Shown: piece after piece, positions 147 through 11,219 of the stretch
How positions within the stretch are numbered: the stretch's first letter is position 1
How the letters are laid out: each line of letters starts with the position of its first letter
Virus record (IMG/VR): IMGVR_UViG_3300005524_000018
Span: 1 to 28,539 of that record
Source of the DNA: a virus
Length of the DNA stretch: 28,539 nucleotides
Reading direction: 5' to 3' (one strand)
The notes under the pieces: model-generated
Databases searched by the model: none
The model's input: only the letters and a program-made list of their open reading frames with translations
Told to the model about the DNA's origin: nothing
Position numbers and translations under genes: made by a program

Positions 147-3100
147 ATGCCGTCTGCGGAAGCGATCCTCCGCGCCACCCACACAACCCCCGGCGCCACC
201 CCCACCCCGGCCCCCCAGGGCGGTACCCTGCACGCCCCCAGCTACGGCCAGTTCTCCCCGCTGGCTGCCAGCCTCGCGAACGAAACCAGCTACCGGAACG
301 TGTACGGGCCGTTCCTGCCCCGCCCCGCCCGCACCTTCACCGAAGGGGCGTTCGGCCCGTTCTCCCCCATCCTCCCCGTCCCCGTCGACGAACCCCCGCC
401 CGGCGCGGCGATGCCCGACCCGCGGCTGTTCCAGTACCAGGTCGGGTGGAACCTGCCCGTCGGGGAACCCGGCAGCGAGGGCCTGAAACTCGCCCCGTTC
501 TCCGCGCTCCGCTCCATCGCCGACCTGTACATCGTCGCCCGCCGCTGCATCCAGAAACGCAAAGACGAAATCAAAGGACTCGAATGGTCCATCGAACTCA
601 CCCCCGAAGCGGCGAAAACCTACCAAGGTGACCACGCCGCGATGCGGGACTTCGGGGAACGCAAAAACCAGGCCACCCGGTTTTTCCGCCGCCCCGACCC
701 CGACTACTGGACGTTCCAGTCGTTCCTCGAAGCCCTCCTGGAGGAAATCTTCGTCTACGACGCCCTGTCGGTCCTGTTCCGCCCCAAGTACGGCACCGGC
801 CTGCACCGGGGGCTCCTCGGCTCCGACCTGGACCACCTGTCCCTGATCCACGGCCCCACCATCCGCCCCCTCCTCGGCCTCCACGGTGAAGTCCCCGCAC
901 CCCCCGCCCCCGCCTACCAGCAGTACCTGTACGGGGTGCCCCGCTCCGACATCGCCGCGATGCTCCGCGACGACGACCTCCGCGCCGCCGGCCTGGCCGG
1001 CGCGGAACTCAACCGGTTCCGCGCCGACCAGCTGCTGTACGCGCCGATGACCACCCGCCGCTGGACCCCCTACGGGTTCCCCCCCGTCGAGCAGGCCCTC
1101 ATCCCCATCATGACCGGGCTGCAGAAACAGTCCTACCAGGCGGACTACTACAAAGAAGGCACCGTCCCCGCGGTGTACATCTCCCCCGGCGACCCCAACC
1201 TCACCCCCAACCAGATCCGGGAACTGCAGGACGCGCTGAACGCGATCGCCGGGGACCCCGCGTTCCACCACAAAGTCATCGTGCTGCCCCCCGGCAGCAA
1301 GGTGGAACCGCAAAAACCAGTGGACCTGGCGGACGCGTTCGACAACATCGTCATGACCCAGACATGCATGGCGTTCGACATTTACCCGATGGAACTGGGG
1401 ATCCTGCCGTGGATCAGCGCGGCCCAGCCCACCCCCGGGTCCACCGCGTCCCGGTACATGGCCCAGGCGGGGCAAACCATCCACCAGCGGCCCTCCACCA
1501 AACCGCTGCTGCTGTTCATCTCCGCGATCTTCAACTACGTGCTGCAGGAAATCTGCGGGCAGCATGACCTGCGGTTCGTGTTCGAAGGGCTCGCCGACCA
1601 GGACAAGGTCGCCGCCACCGAACTGGGCATCCAGCAGGTGCAGAACGGGATAGCGTCGATCGACGAGATCCGCGACAAACTCGACATGCCGCCGTGGGGG
1701 CTGCCGGAAACCTCCGAACCGGTGGTGTTCACTGCGCAGGGCCCGGTGCCGTTCAGCATGGCTCCCAACCTGATCGCTGCCGCCTACCAGCACCCCGCGC
1801 AACCCACCAGCAGCGGCCAGCACGACCCGGGGGAGGCGCCCCGCACCCGGCAGCCGCGGATACGCCGAGGCGGCCAGACCCGCCCCAACGGCACCCACCC
1901 CGCGCCGGTCGCCCCGCACCGGGAAGCTCTCACCCCCGCCCACTCCGCCGCCGCCGGGGTCATCCAGTCCCCCACCCCCCGCACCGGGGGAACCCGGAAC
2001 CGGTCCCCGGTCGCCGGGTCCAGGAAGAAAGCCGCCGCCGCGGAACTGGAAGCCCTCACGCGGCACCTGCGGAAAGGCCGGCTGATCTCCACCTGGCAGC
2101 CCCAGCACCTGCCTCCCCGCGCCCTGTCGATGATCGCGGAGGACGTCGCGAAAGGCGCCACCGTGGAAACAGCCGCCGCGCGCGCCGCCGCCACCTGCCT
2201 CCCCGGCATGGATGTGGACGATCTCCCCGGCCCCGGAGATGAACCCGGAGAAGAGACAGCGGGAAACGGTGAGGCGGTGGTGAAAACCGCCGCCCCGGGC
2301 CGGCACTGGCCTGGGTGGCGGCGTGACCTGGAACTGGTCGCCGCCTACACCGGGCGCGTGTCCGCAGCGTTCCGGAAAGCCACCCGGAAAGCCGCCGCTC
2401 TTATCCGCCGGTGGGTGGACGGCACTCTCCCCGTCACCGCCGCGGAACTCGCCGGCCTGATCGCCGCCGTGATACGGAAAACCCTCACCAAGGTGCTGCG
2501 GCGGCTGTGGCGGGAAGCCTGGCACCTCGGTCACGTCGCCGCCGCCGCCGCTGTCACCGGGCGGGAACCCGCGTGGGGGGCGTGGCGTCCCGGGGACGGC
2601 CGCACCATCGGGGTCGCCTACCCGCAGGCGCTGAACGCGTTCCTCGCCACCCACGGCGCCACCGTGCTCGCTGAGATCAGCGAAACCCGCACACAGGCTC
2701 TGCTGGACGCTCTCCGCACCCGCGACCCCCAGGAGGTGACCGAGCAGCTAGCCAGCCTCCTGTGGTTCCCCATGCGCGCCGAACTGATCGCTGTCACCGA
2801 GGTGATGGCCGCCCAGGGCGCCGCCGCGTTCCGCGAATACCAGCAGCAGCAGGTGGCGTACAAGCAGTGGGTGGTCGCGGACGCGGACGCGTGCCCGGTC
2901 TGCAAGGCGAACGCCGCGGAAGGCCCCATCCCCCTGTCCGCGGTGTTCCAAAGCGGTGACCTCACCGTCCCCGCCCACCCCCGGTGCCGGTGCGCTGTCC
3001 TCCCCGCCTGGGAACAACCCGAACCCGTGGTAGGTAAAACAGCCGCGGCGGAAGACCCGTCCCGGGCGGCGTTCCTGCTGCTCCGCGCCCCCGGTGACGA

Positions 3101-4385
3101 CCACAAGTGGCGGTACCTGCTGCAAAAACGCGACGACGGGACGTGGGGGCTGCCGGGGGGGAAAACCCACAGCGGGGAACACCCGTGGAACGCGGCGCTG
3201 CGGGAAACCACCGAGGAACTGGGGGACCTGCCCCCTGTCAGCCCCGCGCTGACACTGCACCACCGGGACAGCGGGGTGGACGTGTGGACGTTCACCGCGG
3301 AACTGGGCACCATGTTCACCCCCACCGTGGACGGCGCCACCCCCGGCGAAACCCACGGGTGGGGATGGTTCAAACGGAAAGAAATCACCCACCTCCCGTT
3401 GTGTCCCGGCATGGCGGCCCTGTGGGAACGCCTCGGTGAAGGCCGCGCTCTTAAAACCACCACCGTGGACCTGAACGGCCAGCCGCAGCACCTGTACTGG
3501 CCAGCCGGCGCCGGCGCACCCACCCCGGTCCCTCACACCGGCGACGGCACCCAGGTGCCCGGCGTACCCGCCGGGGGGGTTCCCGCCCCCACCCCCGGCG
3601 GCGCCCCGCCCCGCTGGGACGGGGACGAGGCAGCCGGGCAGACGTGGGGGACGCACGGACCCGGTGGGGTTACCACCGCCGGCCGGGCCGGCGGTTCCTC
3701 CGGCGGCGGCGCCGGCGACACCACCCCCACCCTCCGCACCCCCCACCCGCTGCCACCGCCGGGGGGGGACGACGCCACCGAACCCGGTCCCCGCACCCCC
3801 GGGCCGGCGGGGCCACGGCAGCAATGGCCAAACGGCACCGCCGGCGGCATGTGGCCGGCTGGCGGCCACACCACCCTCCAGCCCCCCGCCGCCCCCATCG
3901 GCGCCGACACCCCCCGCAGCCGGCCCCCCAGCCCGGTGGGGAAAGCAGGAGGCGCCGCCGACTACACCGACCCCAGCAGCGTCGAAGCCGAACACGTGTA
4001 CGTGCAGCTCGCGCACAACTTCCCCGCGAAAGCCATCCAGTGGGTGAAACGCGCCCGGTGGATCGGCCCCATCTGGGTGCCGTGGGACCGGGTCGACACC
4101 CACGACGAAGACAAGTGGGCCGCCACCCACCAGCCCGCCCGGGTCGCCGAGTTCGCCCGGGAAATCCGCGACCACCACGGCCACGTCCAGCCGTCCGTGC
4201 TGGTGCAGGAACCCGGCGGGGGGCGGGCGTTCATCGTCGACGGCCACCACCGGGCTCTCGCCCGCCGGCTGCTCGGGCAGAAAGTCCTCGCCTACCTGGG
4301 TGTCATCGACCCCGCGGACCGGGAAGCCGCCCTCGAAACCCACACCCACCAGATCCACCAGGGCGCCAGCCCGCAGAACCGATGA
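147..4385 (+). CDS. Giant portal protein fused to MuF-like, Nudix hydrolase and ParB/Srx-like domains (1412 aa)
   Basis: Start ATG 147 follows a strong GGAGGTGA site. Residues about 50-540 resemble a siphophage portal, the dodecameric DNA gate at the capsid vertex (YGFPPVEQAL, then IDEIRDKLDMPPWGLPET). A Pro-rich linker leads to a MuF/SPP1 gp7-like region (about 655-960) ending in the family signature CPVCKAN...PAHPRCRCAVLPAW. Residues about 970-1105 form a Nudix hydrolase with an intact box, G-x5-E-x7-RETTEELGD (about 1005-1028). A Gly/Pro-rich linker of about 160 residues precedes a ParB/sulfiredoxin-like region (about 1283-1412) with FIVDGHHRALARRLLG. Usual portals are about 450-550 aa, so this is a multi-enzyme fusion. 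The stop overlaps the next start (ATGA). The portal and MuF calls are firm from motifs and context. The Nudix call is firm from its box, but its substrate is unknown. The ParB-like role is inferred. Confidence 0.88.
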   Translation: MPSAEAILRATHTTPGATPTPAPQGGTLHAPSYGQFSPLAASLANETSYRNVYGPFLPRPARTFTEGAFGPFSPILPVPVDEPPPGAAMPDPRLFQYQVGWNLPVGEPGSEGLKLAPFSALRSIADLYIVARRCIQKRKDEIKGLEWSIELTPEAAKTYQGDHAAMRDFGERKNQATRFFRRPDPDYWTFQSFLEALLEEIFVYDALSVLFRPKYGTGLHRGLLGSDLDHLSLIHGPTIRPLLGLHGEVPAPPAPAYQQYLYGVPRSDIAAMLRDDDLRAAGLAGAELNRFRADQLLYAPMTTRRWTPYGFPPVEQALIPIMTGLQKQSYQADYYKEGTVPAVYISPGDPNLTPNQIRELQDALNAIAGDPAFHHKVIVLPPGSKVEPQKPVDLADAFDNIVMTQTCMAFDIYPMELGILPWISAAQPTPGSTASRYMAQAGQTIHQRPSTKPLLLFISAIFNYVLQEICGQHDLRFVFEGLADQDKVAATELGIQQVQNGIASIDEIRDKLDMPPWGLPETSEPVVFTAQGPVPFSMAPNLIAAAYQHPAQPTSSGQHDPGEAPRTRQPRIRRGGQTRPNGTHPAPVAPHREALTPAHSAAAGVIQSPTPRTGGTRNRSPVAGSRKKAAAAELEALTRHLRKGRLISTWQPQHLPPRALSMIAEDVAKGATVETAAARAAATCLPGMDVDDLPGPGDEPGEETAGNGEAVVKTAAPGRHWPGWRRDLELVAAYTGRVSAAFRKATRKAAALIRRWVDGTLPVTAAELAGLIAAVIRKTLTKVLRRLWREAWHLGHVAAAAAVTGREPAWGAWRPGDGRTIGVAYPQALNAFLATHGATVLAEISETRTQALLDALRTRDPQEVTEQLASLLWFPMRAELIAVTEVMAAQGAAAFREYQQQQVAYKQWVVADADACPVCKANAAEGPIPLSAVFQSGDLTVPAHPRCRCAVLPAWEQPEPVVGKTAAAEDPSRAAFLLLRAPGDDHKWRYLLQKRDDGTWGLPGGKTHSGEHPWNAALRETTEELGDLPPVSPALTLHHRDSGVDVWTFTAELGTMFTPTVDGATPGETHGWGWFKRKEITHLPLCPGMAALWERLGEGRALKTTTVDLNGQPQHLYWPAGAGAPTPVPHTGDGTQVPGVPAGGVPAPTPGGAPPRWDGDEAAGQTWGTHGPGGVTTAGRAGGSSGGGAGDTTPTLRTPHPLPPPGGDDATEPGPRTPGPAGPRQQWPNGTAGGMWPAGGHTTLQPPAAPIGADTPRSRPPSPVGKAGGAADYTDPSSVEAEHVYVQLAHNFPAKAIQWVKRARWIGPIWVPWDRVDTHDEDKWAATHQPARVAEFAREIRDHHGHVQPSVLVQEPGGGRAFIVDGHHRALARRLLGQKVLAYLGVIDPADREAALETHTHQIHQGASPQNR
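1239..1328 (+). repeat. Copy 1 of an exact 90-bp in-frame duplication (portal gene)
   Basis: These 90 bases are identical to 5817-5906, with mismatches beginning immediately on both sides. They encode portal residues 365-394 (30 whole codons, from NAIAGDP to KPVDL). The segment fits continuously into the portal-like sequence around it (...RELQDAL before, ADAFDNIVMTQ after), so this is probably the original copy. Confidence 0.97.
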
Positions 4386-4777
4386 CTGGGAACATCACGT
4401 TCACCGCGGCGGAACTAGCCGCCTACCTCGGTAAGTCCGCCCGCACCCCCGTCGTGTCCACCCAGCATCACCACCTCGGCCCGGAAGGACTGTGGCACAC
4501 CCCCGACCGGCACGTCCCCTACAAGCAGCAGCTCCCCGCGTACGTGCAGAACACGGCGCGGGCGCTCATGCGGGACCACGGGATGAGCGAGCAGGAAGCG
4601 ATCGCCACCGCGATCCAGGCGATCCGCGAATGGGCGCGGGGCCGCGCGTTCGGCGGGAAAGTCAAAGTCACCCCGCAGGTGCGGCGCGCAGCGAAACGCG
4701 CCCTGAAACAGTGGGCCAAGCTGAAAGCCACCCACCACGGTGACGGTAAGAGCAGTAAGAAAGGCACGAGCAGGTGA
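4382..4777 (+). CDS. Small basic helical phage protein of the head module (131 aa)
   Basis: ATG 4382 overlaps the portal stop (ATGA), indicating translational coupling. The 131-residue product has an N-terminal ITFTAAELAAYL helix, then LPAYVQNTARALMRDHGMSEQEAIATAI-type sequence followed by a WARG turn and a Lys/Arg-rich tail (KRALKQWAKLKA...KSSKKG). This helical segment, in which a short residual peptide is followed by an A-I-x-x-A-I helix, recurs in small actinophage head proteins and in protease-associated segments, but has no firm function. The basic end could contact DNA or the portal. No catalytic motif is visible. A longer frame opens upstream at 3644, but that part is an out-of-frame shadow of the portal gene. 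Confidence 0.75.
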   Translation: MTGNITFTAAELAAYLGKSARTPVVSTQHHHLGPEGLWHTPDRHVPYKQQLPAYVQNTARALMRDHGMSEQEAIATAIQAIREWARGRAFGGKVKVTPQVRRAAKRALKQWAKLKATHHGDGKSSKKGTSR

Positions 4778-5087: not shown

Positions 5088-5104
5088 GCAAGGAGCTGTG
5101 TGGC
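5088..5104 (+). promoter_or_regulatory. Shared start-site motif, copy 1 (before the protease gene)
   Basis: The 17 bases GCAAGGAGCTGTGTGGC contain the Shine-Dalgarno core AAGGAG and the GTG start at 5100. The same 17 bases occur at the capsid gene start (8074-8090), and the 13-base core AAGGAGCTGTGTG also occurs at 13131-13143. The spacer is only 4 nt, and a second, out-of-frame GTG sits 2 nt upstream of the true start. Confidence 0.75.
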
Positions 5105-8027
5105 CGCGACCCTCACCGCCGGTCAGGAACTCATCCGGTTCAGTTTCCCGATCGAAAAATCCGAAGACACCACTGCTGTCAACCCGCTGGACGGCACCCC
5201 CGACATCGTGATCTGGGGGAAAGCCACCGACGGAACCGTGGACGGTGACCGGGAGATCGTGGACCCCGAGTGGAGCGCGAAAGCGCTCCGGGAATGGCTG
5301 GACACCGGCGGGAACGTCCGCATGGCCCACGACCCCCGCCAGCCGGTCGGCAAGGGCATGCATGTGGAGATCACCCCCGACGGGCATTACGTGAAAAGCC
5401 TCATCGCCGACCCCAAAGCCAAGCATTTCATCCGCATGGGGATCATCAGCGACTACTCGGTGGGTATCTCCAACCCCGACTTCCGGTACCGGGACCCCAC
5501 CCTCGACCCAGCCGGGAAAGCGGCCCGGATCATCACCGGCCGGCCGGACGGGTCAACCCGCATCTCCGAACTGTCCATCGTGGACCGCGGGTCCAACTTC
5601 AACACCAAGTTCCAGATCGCCAAGGCCGCCGCGGACGGCACCTGCGAGTTCACCGGGAAAGTGCTCGGCGGTGACCTGGACCCCAAGGGAGACACCGTGA
5701 CCGTGGACCTGCCCGCCGACGTGTCGGTGTCCGTGTCACCAGCGGACCTGGCGAAACTGGCCACGTTCCGCCGCAAGCTCGCCATGCAGCAGGCCGGCGC
5801 AGCCAAGGCAGCGACAAACGCGATCGCCGGGGACCCCGCGTTCCACCACAAAGTCATCGTGCTGCCCCCCGGCAGCAAGGTGGAACCGCAAAAACCAGTG
5901 GACCTGAACACCGGAACCAAGACAGCTGACCCGGACGTGGCGAAACGGGACTTCGACCCCAACGTCGGCGGCGGCGTGGACCGCGACAAGCTCCCCGACT
6001 CCGACTTCGCCGGCAAGCACCGCTCGTTCCCGATTGTCACACCCGAAGACGTGTCCGACGCGCTCCACTCGATCGGCCGCGCCGGCCCCGACAACTACAG
6101 CCCGGAAAAGCTGAAGAAGCGGATCCTCGCGATCGCGCGGCGGAAAGGCTTCCCCATCCCCGAATCCGACAAGCCGGGTGAGAAGGACACCAAGGGGAAG
6201 GCTGACGTCCCGGACGAGGTGAAGTGCGTCAAATGCGGCGGCGCGGGGGAGGTCGACGGGCAGCCGTGCCCGCAGTGCCGCCCCGCCCACACCGAAACCA
6301 CCCCCCCCGCAGGGGCGGACAAGACCACCGCTGTCAGGAAGAAGAAGTGCAAGGCGTGCGGCGGCACCGGCCACACCAGCGACGGGGACTCCTGCGCCGC
6401 TTGCGCCGGCACCGGCACCCGGGATGTCACCAAGAACACCGGGACCCACCACGCCAAACCGGCCCGCGAGAACAGCGAAACAAGCAAGAAGGGCAAGAAG
6501 GGCAAAAAGGGCAAAGGCGGGCTGCCGGAAGCGTTCATCGAGCATGAAAACCACCCCGGTGACACGGTGAAAGCCGGGAAACCCACCCCCGGGGAGCATG
6601 CGGTGGGCGCCGCCGAGCATGACATGCGGCCCGTCCCCCCCCACCGGGAACCCGACGGCGCGGAGGTGGAAGCGTTCGAAGACGACGCCCACATGCAGGA
6701 CGGCGACGCCCACGACCCCGTTGAGCAGCCCACCCCCCTGGAGAAACCAACCCTCGACGGGGACTGTGAGAAAGCCGCCCTGCTGCGGTTCAAGGCAGCC
6801 GGGGTCACCGACCCGGTCCTCGGGGTGCTGCATGACCTCACCTGCCCCGCCTACCACCCCGGTGACGTGGCACGCCACCACCCCACCGCCGACCTGGCGT
6901 CCCTGATCAGTGAAGAGTTCTGGGCGCGGAAAGCACTCGACGCGGTGTCGGTGATGCCGCTGCCGCAAGCCGCCCGCATCCACGGCATCGCCACCGCCGC
7001 GCGGGCGCTGAAAAACACCGACCCGGTGCTGCTCAACGACTGGCGGCTGGAAGCGCACAAGGCGTTCCGGGACGCCAATCCCGGCCCAGGGTCGTTCCCC
7101 ACCCCCGGGGAGGTCAGCCCACGCCGGTTCAGCCGGCCCATCCTCACCGCCGGGCACGCCGCAGACTCCCCCGGCAACACCCCCGGGGTGCACACCACCG
7201 GCGTGCACCCCGCCGCAGGGGATGTGACCGCCGCCCAGTTCACCCGCGGCCCGGTCACCGCCGGGCACGCCGCGGACTCCCCGGCGAGCAAAACCACCCC
7301 CGCCGGGGGTTACCCGCAGACACCGGGGGTGCCGCAGCCGGTGAACTACACGCACGTGGAGCACGCGAACGCCCGGCACGCCCTGCAGGTCATGCACGAC
7401 CACGTCGCGGAAACCTTCCCCGACGTGTGCCCCATGGCCCTGTCCCCCACCCCCCGGCCGGCACCCCACCCGGTGCCCGCAGCCCAGGGGGCCGGCGACG
7501 CGGCCCGGCGTGCCCGTAAAACCGCGAAAGCCGCCGCGAAAGCCGCGAAGCTGGAAAAAAAGCTCCGCAAAGCGCGGAAAACCGCCGGGATCACCCCCCA
7601 GAAGAAGGAGAAGGGGAAGAAAACAGATGCGGCGGATGCGGCGGTGGCGAAAACCGCCGGGTATGCCCCGCCGGCGCCGGATGTCACCAAGGCGGTCGGG
7701 GACGCCGTCGCCCCCCTCCTTGACTCCTACCAGGAGCTGCTCGGGAAGGTTGCCCGGCAGGAGAAGCTGCTGAAAAAGCAAACCCGGCTGCTGGACGCTC
7801 TCGCTGACCAGCCCGACCCGTCCACCGCAGCGTTCAAAGGCGTCGCGATCAACCCGCCTCAGGTTTCCGCGCGCCCGGCGGGCCCGCGGACCGTGGCCGA
7901 AGCCGCTGACCGTGCCCAGGCCACCCGCATGCAGCAGCTGCGTGAGCAGTGGCTGCGTGACCCCAACCCGGCGCAGCGGGAAGCTGCGGAACGGGAACTG
8001 TTCAAAATGGCCGGACTGATCCCTTAA
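5100..8027 (+). CDS. Prohead protease with scaffold-like C-terminus and DnaJ-like zinc fingers (975 aa)
   Basis: The protein would cleave scaffold and capsid during prohead maturation. Residues 1-180 look like an HK97/XkdF-type phage serine protease: MAHDP supplies candidate His77, DYSVGIS supplies candidate Ser120, and ISELSIVDRGSN closes the fold. Residues 240-269 are an exact copy of a portal segment. Residues about 297-352 (LPDSDFAGKHRSFPI... to ...ILAIARRKGFPIP) form a short helical module common in actinophage proteases. Residues about 374-443 hold CxxCxGxG-type zinc fingers, followed by a Lys/Gly tract. A long Pro/His-rich middle includes two TAGHAADSP repeats. The end is an Ala/Lys helix and coiled coil (about 800-925), suggesting a built-in scaffold, since no separate scaffold gene exists. 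Usual proteases are about 200 aa. The GTG start uses the shared motif. The protease call is likely; the scaffold role is inferred. Confidence 0.8.
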   Translation: MAATLTAGQELIRFSFPIEKSEDTTAVNPLDGTPDIVIWGKATDGTVDGDREIVDPEWSAKALREWLDTGGNVRMAHDPRQPVGKGMHVEITPDGHYVKSLIADPKAKHFIRMGIISDYSVGISNPDFRYRDPTLDPAGKAARIITGRPDGSTRISELSIVDRGSNFNTKFQIAKAAADGTCEFTGKVLGGDLDPKGDTVTVDLPADVSVSVSPADLAKLATFRRKLAMQQAGAAKAATNAIAGDPAFHHKVIVLPPGSKVEPQKPVDLNTGTKTADPDVAKRDFDPNVGGGVDRDKLPDSDFAGKHRSFPIVTPEDVSDALHSIGRAGPDNYSPEKLKKRILAIARRKGFPIPESDKPGEKDTKGKADVPDEVKCVKCGGAGEVDGQPCPQCRPAHTETTPPAGADKTTAVRKKKCKACGGTGHTSDGDSCAACAGTGTRDVTKNTGTHHAKPARENSETSKKGKKGKKGKGGLPEAFIEHENHPGDTVKAGKPTPGEHAVGAAEHDMRPVPPHREPDGAEVEAFEDDAHMQDGDAHDPVEQPTPLEKPTLDGDCEKAALLRFKAAGVTDPVLGVLHDLTCPAYHPGDVARHHPTADLASLISEEFWARKALDAVSVMPLPQAARIHGIATAARALKNTDPVLLNDWRLEAHKAFRDANPGPGSFPTPGEVSPRRFSRPILTAGHAADSPGNTPGVHTTGVHPAAGDVTAAQFTRGPVTAGHAADSPASKTTPAGGYPQTPGVPQPVNYTHVEHANARHALQVMHDHVAETFPDVCPMALSPTPRPAPHPVPAAQGAGDAARRARKTAKAAAKAAKLEKKLRKARKTAGITPQKKEKGKKTDAADAAVAKTAGYAPPAPDVTKAVGDAVAPLLDSYQELLGKVARQEKLLKKQTRLLDALADQPDPSTAAFKGVAINPPQVSARPAGPRTVAEAADRAQATRMQQLREQWLRDPNPAQREAAERELFKMAGLIP
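5817..5906 (+). repeat. Copy 2 of the exact 90-bp in-frame duplication (protease gene)
   Basis: Identical to 1239-1328 and also in frame, encoding protease residues 240-269. Here the segment sits between the protease domain and the DFAGKHRSFPI module and has no obvious structural fit, so this looks like the recipient copy. Confidence 0.97.
7144..7282 (+). repeat. Pair of short direct repeats inside the protease gene
   Basis: A 28-base segment at 7144-7171 recurs at 7255-7282 with one mismatch, 111 bases (37 codons) apart. It encodes TAGHAADSP in both copies. The two copies lie in a Pro/Gly/His-rich linker region of the long protease/scaffold protein. Confidence 0.75.
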
Positions 8028-8073: not shown

Positions 8074-8090
8074 GCAAGGAGCTGTGTGGC
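8074..8090 (+). promoter_or_regulatory. Shared start-site motif, copy 2 (before the capsid gene)
   Basis: The 17 bases are identical to 5088-5104 and include AAGGAG (8076-8081) and the GTG start at 8086. The capsid gene needs the highest translation of the head module, so reuse of this site fits a strong initiation signal. Confidence 0.75.
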
Positions 8091-9975
8091 AGATATTCTC
8101 ACCACCGGCGGGGAAACCGCCGTCACCGGCCCGGCCGCGGCGGAAGCCGCCGCCCAGGCCACCCGGTACACGCGGACCGGGCAGATGCTCGCCGACCGGG
8201 CGCAGAACCTGGTGAAAGGCGCCGGGTACATCGGGAACGGCAACGCCCCGCTACAGGACCAGGGGCTTATCCTCACCAAAGCCCACAACGTGGCCCTGTC
8301 GGTGCGCACCGAAAGTGACCGCGCCTACCGGGACACCGATTCTGTTATCAAAAGCATCAGCCCCGATTTCTGGCGTGCCAAACCAAACCTGTACCAGTCG
8401 GCGATGCTGGGGTCGCAGGCGCTGAAGTCGTTCACCGCCGGGAACCTGGGGCTGCCCGGGGTGCCGTTCGGGCTGGTGCCGTTCGACCTGCTCGCCCCCA
8501 GCCGGCTCATCTACCCGGTGTACACGGTGCTGCGGAACAAGCTGCCCCGCCCGCCCGGCCAGGGTGAAAGCCGGCAGGTGTACGGGCTGCTCGGCGTGTC
8601 CGGTTCCCAGACCGGCGGTCAGGGAGTCATGGACATCGCTATCCCCGAACTGGTCAACCCCAGCGGCGGGAACCTGTCCGGCACCAACTGGCCGCTGAAC
8701 CTTCCCCCGTCCGGGTCCCAGACCGAATACAAACTCAACGTCCCGTACAAGTTTTTCGGCATCACCGAGGCGCTTTCCTGGCTGGCCCAGTTCGAAGGCC
8801 AGGGGTTGGAGGACATGTCCTCCCTGGCGAACCTGGTGCTGCTGCAGGAAGCCATGATGGCGGAGGAGTACGCGATGCTGGCGCACTCCTCGCAGAAGAT
8901 CCCCACCCCGGGGGCGCCGGCGCTGACCGCGCGGAACGCCGGGTCGGGGGAGTCACCGCTGACCGGGGTCACCACGAACGTGTTCGTGGTGGTGACCGCC
9001 CTCAACTACTACGGGGAAACCGCCGCGTCCGCGTCCGCGTCGGTGGCTGTGTCGTCCGGGCAGGTGGTGGACGTGACGATCTCCCCGGTGCCGGGGGCGC
9101 AGCAGTACAACCTGTATGTGTCCACCGGGTCCACCGCCGGCACTTTCTACCTGATGGCCGGGGCGTCCCGGCAGAACGGCTCCGGCGGCACCACCGGCAC
9201 GATCACCTTGTACCGGGGCACCCAGACCGGCAACTCGGTTGGCGGGGTCCGGTTCACCCTGCAGGGGGCGCTTCCCACCTCCGGGGCGGAAGCGATGACC
9301 GCCGACTCCGGCACCGGCAGCCCCAACCGGATGGAAGGGATCATCCCCACCCTCACCGGCCTGTCAGCGTCCGGGTCCGGTCCCTACGCCAACGCGGTCG
9401 TTGAGGGACCGTCCATCTCCTGGCAGGGCGGGTACGTCAACCAGGCGGTCGGCACCCACCTGTCCTACAACGCCGTGTACGAGGCGCTGGACGGGCTGTG
9501 GGAAACCAACGGCATCAACAACGACTCCCCCGGCGCGTTCCGCGCCGACCCGGCGGAGATCCTCGGCGACGGCGGCGACATCATGCGCCTGTCCAACGAC
9601 GTGATCGCCCAGGGCGCGTCCACCAACTACCGGCTGTTCCTCGAGCAGTCCGACGTGCCCGGGGTGCGGGTCGGCGCGGCCGTGTCGGAGTTCCAGAACC
9701 CGATCACCCGGTCGGTGCTGAAGCTGGTTGTCCACCCGTGGATGAGCCAGGGCACCGCGCTGCTGATGACCTACCAGCTGCCGCAGACCTGGTCGAACGT
9801 GGCGAACGCGTGGGAGATGACCATGGTGCAGGACTACATTTCCGTGTCCTGGCCGGTGATCGACGCGTCGTTCCGGTACTCGCTGTTCTTCCTGGGGGCG
9901 CTTGTCGCGCACGCCCCGTTCTACAGCGGCATCCTGCAGGGGCTGCAGGTCAGTGACACCACACCCTTCCAGTAA
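8086..9975 (+). CDS. Major capsid protein with an Ig/FN3-like insertion (629 aa)
   Basis: This is the main shell protein, assigned from its place after the protease, its length, and capsid-like segments such as SAMLGSQALKSFTAG, a long helix around QEAMMAEEYAML, and the C-terminal PVIDASFRYSLFFLGAL. Residues about 266-400 form a beta-rich insert with the pattern of a fibronectin III/Ig-like domain (TNVFVVVTALNYYGET... and PGAQQYNLYVSTG). Such a domain would be exposed on the capsid surface. The start is GTG in the shared motif. A perfect 15-bp hairpin follows the stop, suggesting a separately stabilised or terminated transcript. HK97-like capsids are often 300-400 aa, so the added length is largely the insert and N-terminal part. 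The call rests on context and pattern, without a fold comparison. Confidence 0.8.
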   Translation: MADILTTGGETAVTGPAAAEAAAQATRYTRTGQMLADRAQNLVKGAGYIGNGNAPLQDQGLILTKAHNVALSVRTESDRAYRDTDSVIKSISPDFWRAKPNLYQSAMLGSQALKSFTAGNLGLPGVPFGLVPFDLLAPSRLIYPVYTVLRNKLPRPPGQGESRQVYGLLGVSGSQTGGQGVMDIAIPELVNPSGGNLSGTNWPLNLPPSGSQTEYKLNVPYKFFGITEALSWLAQFEGQGLEDMSSLANLVLLQEAMMAEEYAMLAHSSQKIPTPGAPALTARNAGSGESPLTGVTTNVFVVVTALNYYGETAASASASVAVSSGQVVDVTISPVPGAQQYNLYVSTGSTAGTFYLMAGASRQNGSGGTTGTITLYRGTQTGNSVGGVRFTLQGALPTSGAEAMTADSGTGSPNRMEGIIPTLTGLSASGSGPYANAVVEGPSISWQGGYVNQAVGTHLSYNAVYEALDGLWETNGINNDSPGAFRADPAEILGDGGDIMRLSNDVIAQGASTNYRLFLEQSDVPGVRVGAAVSEFQNPITRSVLKLVVHPWMSQGTALLMTYQLPQTWSNVANAWEMTMVQDYISVSWPVIDASFRYSLFFLGALVAHAPFYSGILQGLQVSDTTPFQ

Positions 9976-10631: not shown

Positions 10632-11219
10632 ATGTCGTTGTATGCGCGCAGTGACCTGATGAGTGTCGCTGTGCCCAAAGACCGGGGGGGGTGCGGAGCC
10701 GGGCACAGCCGCCCGGTGACCCGCGGCGCTCCCGCACCTGTGTGGCGGCTCGACTGCCCCGCCTGCTGCGCCGCCCTGAAAGACGACCCGCTGTGGTCGG
10801 GGCGGCTGTCGGAGATCCCCGAAACCCCCGACGAGGAAGCCGCCCGCAAAGACTACGAGCAGCGGGGCGCGAAAGAACGCGACTACGTGCAGGCACTGGC
10901 GCTCGCGAAAATCGCGAACGTTCCGCTCCCGGAAACCCTGACGAGTGCCCTGACCGGGGTGCGGGCCCACATTCCCGTGGAGGGGACGCTGGAATGCCCC
11001 GCCGGGCATGAGGTGCCGGCGGGGAGCCGGTTCTGCCCCGAATGCGGTGCCCGCATGCAGCCCACCGCGCCGCGGTCACTGGAAGCCGGCGGCGGCGGGG
11101 AGGGTGAACCGGATCTGGGGTCGCTGCCGGCGGCGAGCCTGCGGAAAATGGCCCGCGACCGTGGCCTGGACGCCACCGGGCCGAAAACAGCGCTGATCGC
11201 CCGGCTGAAAGGCGCCTAG
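10632..11219 (+). CDS. Two-zinc-finger protein with SAP-like C-terminus (195 aa)
   Basis: ATG 10632 is preceded by GGAAGGAA. Two fingers share the same layout: C21-x3-H25-x16-C42-x2-C45 and C122-x3-H126-x8-C135-x2-C138. Between them is a charged helix (DEEAARKDYEQRGAKERDYV). The last 35 residues (LPAASLRKMARDRGLDATG, then KTALIARLKGA) match the SAP helix-extension-helix pattern known for DNA binding. The fingers plus SAP suggest a nucleic-acid-binding protein of the head-tail joining region; this is inferred from the motifs. Confidence 0.75.
   Translation: MSLYARSDLMSVAVPKDRGGCGAGHSRPVTRGAPAPVWRLDCPACCAALKDDPLWSGRLSEIPETPDEEAARKDYEQRGAKERDYVQALALAKIANVPLPETLTSALTGVRAHIPVEGTLECPAGHEVPAGSRFCPECGARMQPTAPRSLEAGGGGEGEPDLGSLPAASLRKMARDRGLDATGPKTALIARLKGA

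What the first reader, a model, noticed from the sequence alone, without database searches (positions are those of the whole stretch)
147..4385. Portal protein carries MuF, Nudix and ParB/Srx-like domains in one chain
Seen: one uninterrupted 1412-codon frame with a portal region, MuF signature (CPVC...HPRCRC), a complete Nudix box, and a ParB-like VDGHHRALA motif. Known: portal and MuF are separate in most phages, and MuF proteins can carry C-terminal effector domains. Inference: the portal ring could bring 12 copies of a nucleotide-processing enzyme and a ParB-like (possibly nuclease or NTP-binding) domain into the capsid. These might act on host nucleotides or defence signals after DNA ejection, or in maturation. 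This exact combination looks unusual to me.
Basis: partly seen in the sequence, partly recalled or inferred. Interest (0 to 1): 0.82.

Follow-up and report, generated by a model that had tools for sequence, protein, structure and literature searches.

The report
Phage portal carrying swappable enzyme modules
The ring protein through which this soil phage packs and ejects its DNA carries extra enzyme-like domains (a Nudix nucleotide-cleaving enzyme and a ParB/sulfiredoxin-type domain), and related phages swap, reorder and split off these domains, which suggests a toolkit carried in the virus head rather than a fixed structural part.

Summary
Window 147-4385 is one open 1412-codon frame with portal, MuF, Nudix and C-terminal ParB/sulfiredoxin (PAR) domains. 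The last two were modelled confidently (pLDDT 87) and match Nudix hydrolases (RenU, Z 17.4) and sulfiredoxin/ParB structures (Z 8-9). Nudix catalytic residues are intact.

Portal-MuF fusions and Nudix-portal or Nudix-MuF fusions are already published, and the isolates Mufasa8 and Sonali have portal-Nudix-MuF. A portal-MuF-Nudix-PAR chain was not found in phage isolates, but it recurs in at least 27 other distinct metagenomic viral contigs (PAR clustered at 95%).

Across 75 PAR clusters the modules behave as a kit. There are two separate Nudix lineages, and a 2H phosphoesterase or an ADP-ribosyltransferase appears in some. Order varies, and PAR is sometimes a separate gene. On a 63-portal tree the swappable module changes at least 14 times and module order at least 19 times. 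Type I Nudix boxes are intact in 56 of 56.

Best reading: a portal-based 'polyvalent' effector set made with the virion head and probably delivered with the DNA to act on host nucleotides or NAD/ADP-ribose signals. Delivery, substrates and PAR's activity are inferred. This is a new variant of a known kind.

The parts
147..4385 (+). Whole chain: portal-MuF-Nudix-PAR polyprotein, 1412 aa
   Evidence: same architecture in relatives
414..1754 (+). Portal domain (residues 90-536)
   Evidence: PF04860 E 1.8e-13; family HMM
2304..3008 (+). MuF domain (residues 720-954), with CPVC...HPRCRC at 2892-2993
   Evidence: phrog_2662 7e-63 through residue 957; family HMM; Pfam below cutoff in the window
3054..3461 (+). 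Nudix hydrolase domain, type I (residues 970-1105)
   Evidence: PF00293 E 6.7e-12; AlphaFold2 pLDDT 86.6; RenU Z 17.4
3159..3224 (+). Nudix box, catalytic residues complete (residues 1005-1026)
   Evidence: box intact in 56 of 56 type I copies
3471..3932 (+). Pro/Gly-rich linker between Nudix and PAR (residues 1109-1262)
   Evidence: length differs between the window and L004
3966..4382 (+). PAR: ParB/sulfiredoxin-fold domain (residues 1274-1412); DGHHR at 4239-4253
   Evidence: AlphaFold2 pLDDT 87.7; Srx/ParB/Noc Z 8-9; SerK profile hit 6e-4; DGHHR-type motif in 74 of 75 clusters
4382..4777 (+). Small gene starting in an ATGA overlap with the portal stop; carries a conserved 80-aa C-terminal domain ('CT') that is fused to the portal chain in some relatives (e.g. 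L004, L015)
5100..8027 (+). Next large head gene, judged a protease/scaffold-like protein from position and sequence (no family hit for that function)
8086..9975 (+). Probable major capsid protein
   Evidence: gene order and conserved homologues; phrog_13692, unknown function

Best explanation
A virion-head 'polyvalent' effector protein built on the portal. The N-terminal half is an ordinary portal plus MuF head protein (shown by homology). The C-terminal half carries a Nudix hydrolase and a ParB/sulfiredoxin-fold domain separated by a long Pro/Gly linker (fold shown by prediction). The chain would be incorporated at the portal vertex during head assembly, facing the capsid interior or freed from the portal by the head protease, and would enter the host with the DNA (inferred). 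In the cell the Nudix would hydrolyse NDP-X molecules, most plausibly ADP-ribose, FAD or NADH-like or defence-signal nucleotides, and PAR would act as an NTP-binding enzyme (nuclease, NTPase or kinase-like) early in infection (inferred). Relatives swap Nudix type, or use a 2H phosphoesterase or ADP-ribosyltransferase, as expected of host-facing effectors.
For: Domain identities. Modularity: in 75 PAR clusters, Nudix in 58, 2H in 12, neither in 9, PAR in the portal chain in 56. Two separated Nudix lineages, type II grouping with Mufasa8/Sonali at SH-aLRT 99. On a portal tree of 63, at least 14 module changes, 19 order changes and 9 PAR fused/separate changes. Type I Nudix box intact in 56 of 56. 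PAR sits with 2H and an ADP-ribosyltransferase exoenzyme directly after portal-MuF in L089 and L091. Published precedent: head-packaged Nudix, 2H and ART fused to MuF/portal (PMC9503650; PMC5512222). Nearest solved Nudix, RenU (33% identity), cleaves ADP-ribose, FAD and NADH (PMC4401782).
Against: No evidence that the protein is injected, or even that the modules stay on the virion portal. Nudix substrates are not predictable from sequence; RenU similarity is only suggestive. The PAR-based scan biases the census towards PAR. The change counts come from a quick tree of mosaic phages and from loci with limited flanks. No cultured phage was found to carry PAR.
Confidence: 0.55

Rival explanations
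1. The modules act late in the producing cell, not after ejection: made as a portal-linked precursor, they clean up nucleotides or defence signals while heads assemble, and are then removed or simply left on the portal.
For: They are encoded with head genes; in several relatives PAR or PAR-Nudix is a separate gene, so virion linkage is not essential.
Against: Most relatives keep them covalently on a structural head protein (56 of 75), which would be pointless if only cytoplasmic activity mattered; published MuF/portal effector fusions are interpreted as injected (PMC9503650, PMC5512222).
Confidence: 0.2
2. PAR is a head-assembly or packaging component (for example an NTP-sensing or DNA-processing domain at the portal), and only Nudix, 2H and ART are swappable effectors.
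For: PAR is more constant than the other modules; in the portal-based scan, not selected for PAR, 8 of 10 loci have it in or next to the portal chain; ParB/Srx domains are reported as NTPases and nucleases (PMC5512222).
Against: PAR changes position and fused/separate state repeatedly (at least 9 changes), is not seen in L030/L031, and sits with 2H and ART effectors in L089/L091.
Confidence: 0.15
3. Nudix and PAR are catalytically dead structural decorations of the portal or capsid interior.
For: Fused structural domains are common in phage heads (general knowledge).
Against: Nudix boxes intact in 56 of 56 type I copies and 27 of 30 type II hits, and the DGHHR-type motif in 74 of 75 PAR clusters, at down to about 40% identity; replacement by another Nudix lineage or a 2H enzyme.
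Confidence: 0.08
4. Assembly or annotation artefact joining separate genes.
For: Metagenomic contig; one odd exact 90-nt repeat nearby.
Against: Same single-frame chain in 27 other distinct contigs, full-length ones 1360-2179 aa, the longest with inteins.
Confidence: 0.02

Closest known systems
Arthrobacter phages Mufasa8 and Sonali gp3 (portal-Nudix-MuF)
   Same: Portal, MuF and Nudix in one about 1000-aa chain next to terminase and head genes; cultured
   Different: Nudix lies before MuF and is of the other lineage (type II); no PAR domain
Burkholderia phage Bcep1 gp18 (portal with C-terminal Nudix)
   Same: Portal-Nudix fusion, annotated as Nudix-like in GenBank
   Different: Head morphogenesis protein is a separate gene; no PAR; other Nudix branch
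Microbacterium phage portal-MuF fusions and MuF-VIP2 ART fusions (PMC7302621)
   Same: Portal fused to MuF; MuF fused to an effector
   Different: No Nudix or PAR reported in that chain in the passages read
Polyvalent proteins (Iyer et al. 2017, PMC5512222) and head-fused NAD/ADPr enzymes (PMC9503650)
   Same: Several effector domains in one chain, encoded with head genes; the same domain classes (Nudix, 2H, ART, ParB)
   Different: Here the chassis is the portal itself with long linkers; PAR is not shown to belong to the DdrB-like ParB group described there
ParB/sulfiredoxin superfamily (ParB, Noc, Srx, SerK, SbnI)
   Same: Same fold and DGHHR-type motif
   Different: No following HTH DNA-binding domain as in ParB/Noc; SerK Glu30 has no Glu counterpart in the profile alignment

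Membership tests
Phage portal protein | PF04860 above gathering score | tested here: met
   50.8 vs 39.1 bits, E 1.8e-13
MuF head protein | PF04233 match above cutoff in this protein | tested here: inconclusive
   19.5 vs 29.6 bits in the window; homologues in L022, L029 and L030 pass; phrog_2662 covers the region
Nudix hydrolase superfamily | Nudix fold and catalytic box residues | tested here: met
   PF00293 46 vs 21.1 bits; pLDDT 86.6; RenU Z 17.4, rmsd 1.9, 130 aligned; box complete apart from two hydrophobic positions
Nudix hydrolase superfamily | Hydrolysis of an NDP-X substrate | not testable with these tools
   needs biochemistry
ParB/sulfiredoxin fold superfamily | Fold and conserved G-H-R type pocket motif | tested here: met
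   Srx 6ky4 Z 9.1 rmsd 2.3 over 88; Noc 8.4, PadC 8.4; SerK profile 6e-4; DGHHR-type motif in 74 of 75 clusters
ParB partition protein | HTH DNA-binding domain after the ParB/Srx domain | tested here: not met
   The chain ends at residue 1412, right after the domain
Free serine kinase (SerK/SbnI) | Catalytic Glu (Glu30 in SerK) | tested here: inconclusive
   Aligned position is not Glu in the profile alignment, but the alignment is weak there
Polyvalent phage effector protein | Two or more effector-type domains in one chain encoded among virion genes | tested here: met
   Nudix and PAR in the portal chain; 2H and ART in relatives
Polyvalent phage effector protein | Packaged in the virion and delivered to the host | not testable with these tools
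   needs proteomics and infection assays
DdrB-like ParB domain | Extra helix with conserved Tyr and Asp/Asn at the end of strand 2 | not tested
   No DdrB sequences were compared here

The most novel reading that the evidence does not exclude
A large, uncultured phage lineage uses its portal protein as a plug-in chassis for delivering swappable enzymes (two Nudix types, 2H phosphoesterase, ADP-ribosyltransferase) that destroy or rewire host nucleotide and NAD-based defence signals, together with a previously undescribed ParB/sulfiredoxin-fold subfamily (PAR) that is the near-constant partner of these modules.
Probability: 0.3. Interest if true: 0.8.

Novelty: new variant of a known kind. Interest (0 to 1): 0.58.

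Why it matters
If right, the portal is not only a DNA gate but the base of a first-minute delivery system, and swapping of modules between close relatives gives a natural experiment for linking enzyme cargo to host defences such as NAD- or cyclic-nucleotide-based signalling. Cultured relatives (Mufasa8, Sonali) make the Nudix half directly testable. PAR appears to be an unannotated virion-associated family: no Pfam match in the window copy and no hit in 50,697 phage records.

Tried and rejected
DNA-level search of phage records: no match. PAR in cultured phages: no match with two queries. The portal chain in bacterial and archaeal genomes: none; PAR there: only five weak hits of 34-39% identity over short stretches, four archaeal and one clostridial, not taken as family members. 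L036's separate PAR gene was rejected as evidence of gene splitting: the junction looks like a single-base indel in an otherwise conserved linker; other splits (L070, L075, L081, L089-L091) were used instead, though their junctions were not read base by base; L036 was still scored as separate in the fused/separate count. Protease-processing idea: K-[GASTND]-A occurs in 30 of 59 linkers before modules against 5.9 in shuffles, and capsid homologues have a conserved K-S before a conserved segment, but most of the linker signal comes from related PAR and CT copies, so it is kept only as a lead. Assigning PAR as a serine kinase was not adopted, for lack of an aligned catalytic Glu. Three type II Nudix hits without a complete box are partial matches; in L038 and L112 an insert splits the domain, and in L038 the second half is seen to carry the box.
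Full report
What is there. Window 147-4385 is one uninterrupted frame of 1412 codons. From the N-terminus it has a portal domain (residues 90-536; PF04860 E 1.8e-13), a Pro/Ala-rich stretch, a MuF domain (720-954; below the Pfam cutoff here, but covered by the portal family phrog_2662 at 7e-63), a Nudix domain (about 970-1105; PF00293 E 6.7e-12), a Pro/Gly-rich linker, and a C-terminal domain (1274-1412) that I call PAR. The next gene starts in an ATGA overlap at 4382. The probable protease/scaffold (5100-8027) and capsid (8086-9975) genes follow.

Fold checks. An alignment of 22 PAR copies from the window and relatives gave a model with pLDDT 87.7; the best matches are sulfiredoxin (Z 9.1), Noc (8.4), PadC (8.4) and ParB (7.9). 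Its profile hits free serine kinase at 6e-4, and 21 of 22 members hit the ParB-like family phrog_1033. The Nudix model (pLDDT 86.6) matches M. smegmatis RenU at Z 17.4, 33% identity. RenU cleaves ADP-ribose, FAD and NADH (PMC4401782).

How common it is. Cultured phages: tblastn finds only portal-level relatives, up to 43% coverage. Of these, Mufasa8 gp3 and Sonali gp3 carry portal-Nudix-MuF. Separately, the Nudix query finds Bcep1 gp18 portal-Nudix and Nudix genes in the head clusters of Bm1, Chronis and QDWS. PAR has no hit in phage records. Uncultured viruses: scans of IMG/VR gave about 100 loci. After clustering PAR at 95% there are 75 representatives. Of these, 28 including the window have portal-MuF-Nudix(I)-PAR in one chain, and three more show MuF-Nudix-PAR cut by a contig end.

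Modularity. Across the 75, Nudix is present in 58 loci, a 2H phosphoesterase in 12 (four have both), and neither in 9; PAR is within the portal chain in 56. Orders include portal-MuF-PAR-Nudix, portal-PAR-MuF, portal-2H-PAR-MuF, portal-Nudix-PAR with separate MuF, and portal with a separate MuF-PAR-Nudix gene. The Nudix domains fall into two separated lineages; type II groups with Mufasa8 and Sonali (SH-aLRT 99), while the window has type I. On a quick portal tree of 63 sequences, the module state (Nudix I, Nudix II, 2H, none) needs at least 14 changes, module order 19, and fused versus separate PAR 9. In L089, PAR and 2H share a protein with an ADP-ribosyltransferase exoenzyme domain (E 4e-19), directly after portal-MuF; in L091 the PAR gene is followed by a 2H-ART gene (E 5e-19). 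Nudix boxes are intact in 56 of 56 type I copies and the DGHHR-type motif in 74 of 75 PAR clusters.

Caveats on the census. Most loci were found with PAR, so PAR's frequency is biased upward. In the portal-based scan, 8 of 10 loci carry PAR in or beside the portal chain. Locus flanks are 6-7 kb, so distant modules can be missed. Phage genes are mosaic, so tree counts are indicative. Domain order was read over all genes downstream of the portal start, and 'separate' PAR includes one locus (L036) whose split looks like a single-base indel and one portal (L030) with no PAR seen.

Interpretation. Frequent swapping between different enzymes with intact active sites argues against a structural role and for host-facing effectors. 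Published work describes Nudix, 2H and ART domains fused to MuF, portal or head protease and proposes injection (PMC9503650; PMC5512222); portal-MuF fusion is documented in Microbacterium phages (PMC7302621). The window protein fits that class, with the portal as the chassis. Shown: domain identities, modularity, conservation. Inferred: head carriage, delivery, substrates, PAR chemistry. PAR is not a ParB partition protein (no HTH follows it). Its fold relatives bind nucleotides (ATP, ADP, CTP or CDP complexes are among the PDB matches), so an NTP-dependent activity is the default guess.

Verdict. It is a new variant of a known kind, and the uncharacterised PAR subfamily and the extent of shuffling are the most interesting parts.

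Noticed in passing
window 5817-5906 and 1239-1328: The protease/scaffold-like gene contains an exact 90-nt copy of a portal segment (30 residues, NAIAGDPAFHHKVIVLPPGSKVEPQKPVDL). L049 has a diverged copy of the same portal region in a 968-aa ORF downstream at another position, and L022 has one in a small ORF. Recent duplication, portal-mimicking element or assembly error: unresolved.
   Followed up: partly
L004:6736-7869; L013 and L023 portal; L020 MuF: Portal and MuF domains of relatives carry apparent inteins, one splitting MuF just before its CRC motif in L020.
   Followed up: partly
window 8086-9975: Probable capsid protein homologues share a conserved N-terminal VKGAG segment and a K-S step before the conserved FTAGNLG...GLVPFDLLAPSRL segment, possibly the maturation cleavage site.
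   Followed up: partly
L089:5179-9987, L091:7878-11786: Large proteins downstream of portal-MuF combine 2H phosphoesterase and ADP-ribosyltransferase exoenzyme domains, with PAR in the same chain in L089.
   Followed up: partly
L024:6677-13165, L114:3934-9660: PAR sits in 2162- and 1908-aa proteins with almost no family matches.
   Followed up: no
window 10632-11219: Small protein with a zinc-ribbon-like motif and a C-terminal SAP domain (SAP E 1.2e-6, above cutoff) among the head-tail genes.
   Followed up: no
window 5100-8027, protein residues 417-445: DnaJ-type CxxCxGxG repeats inside the protease/scaffold-like protein (below Pfam cutoff).
   Followed up: no
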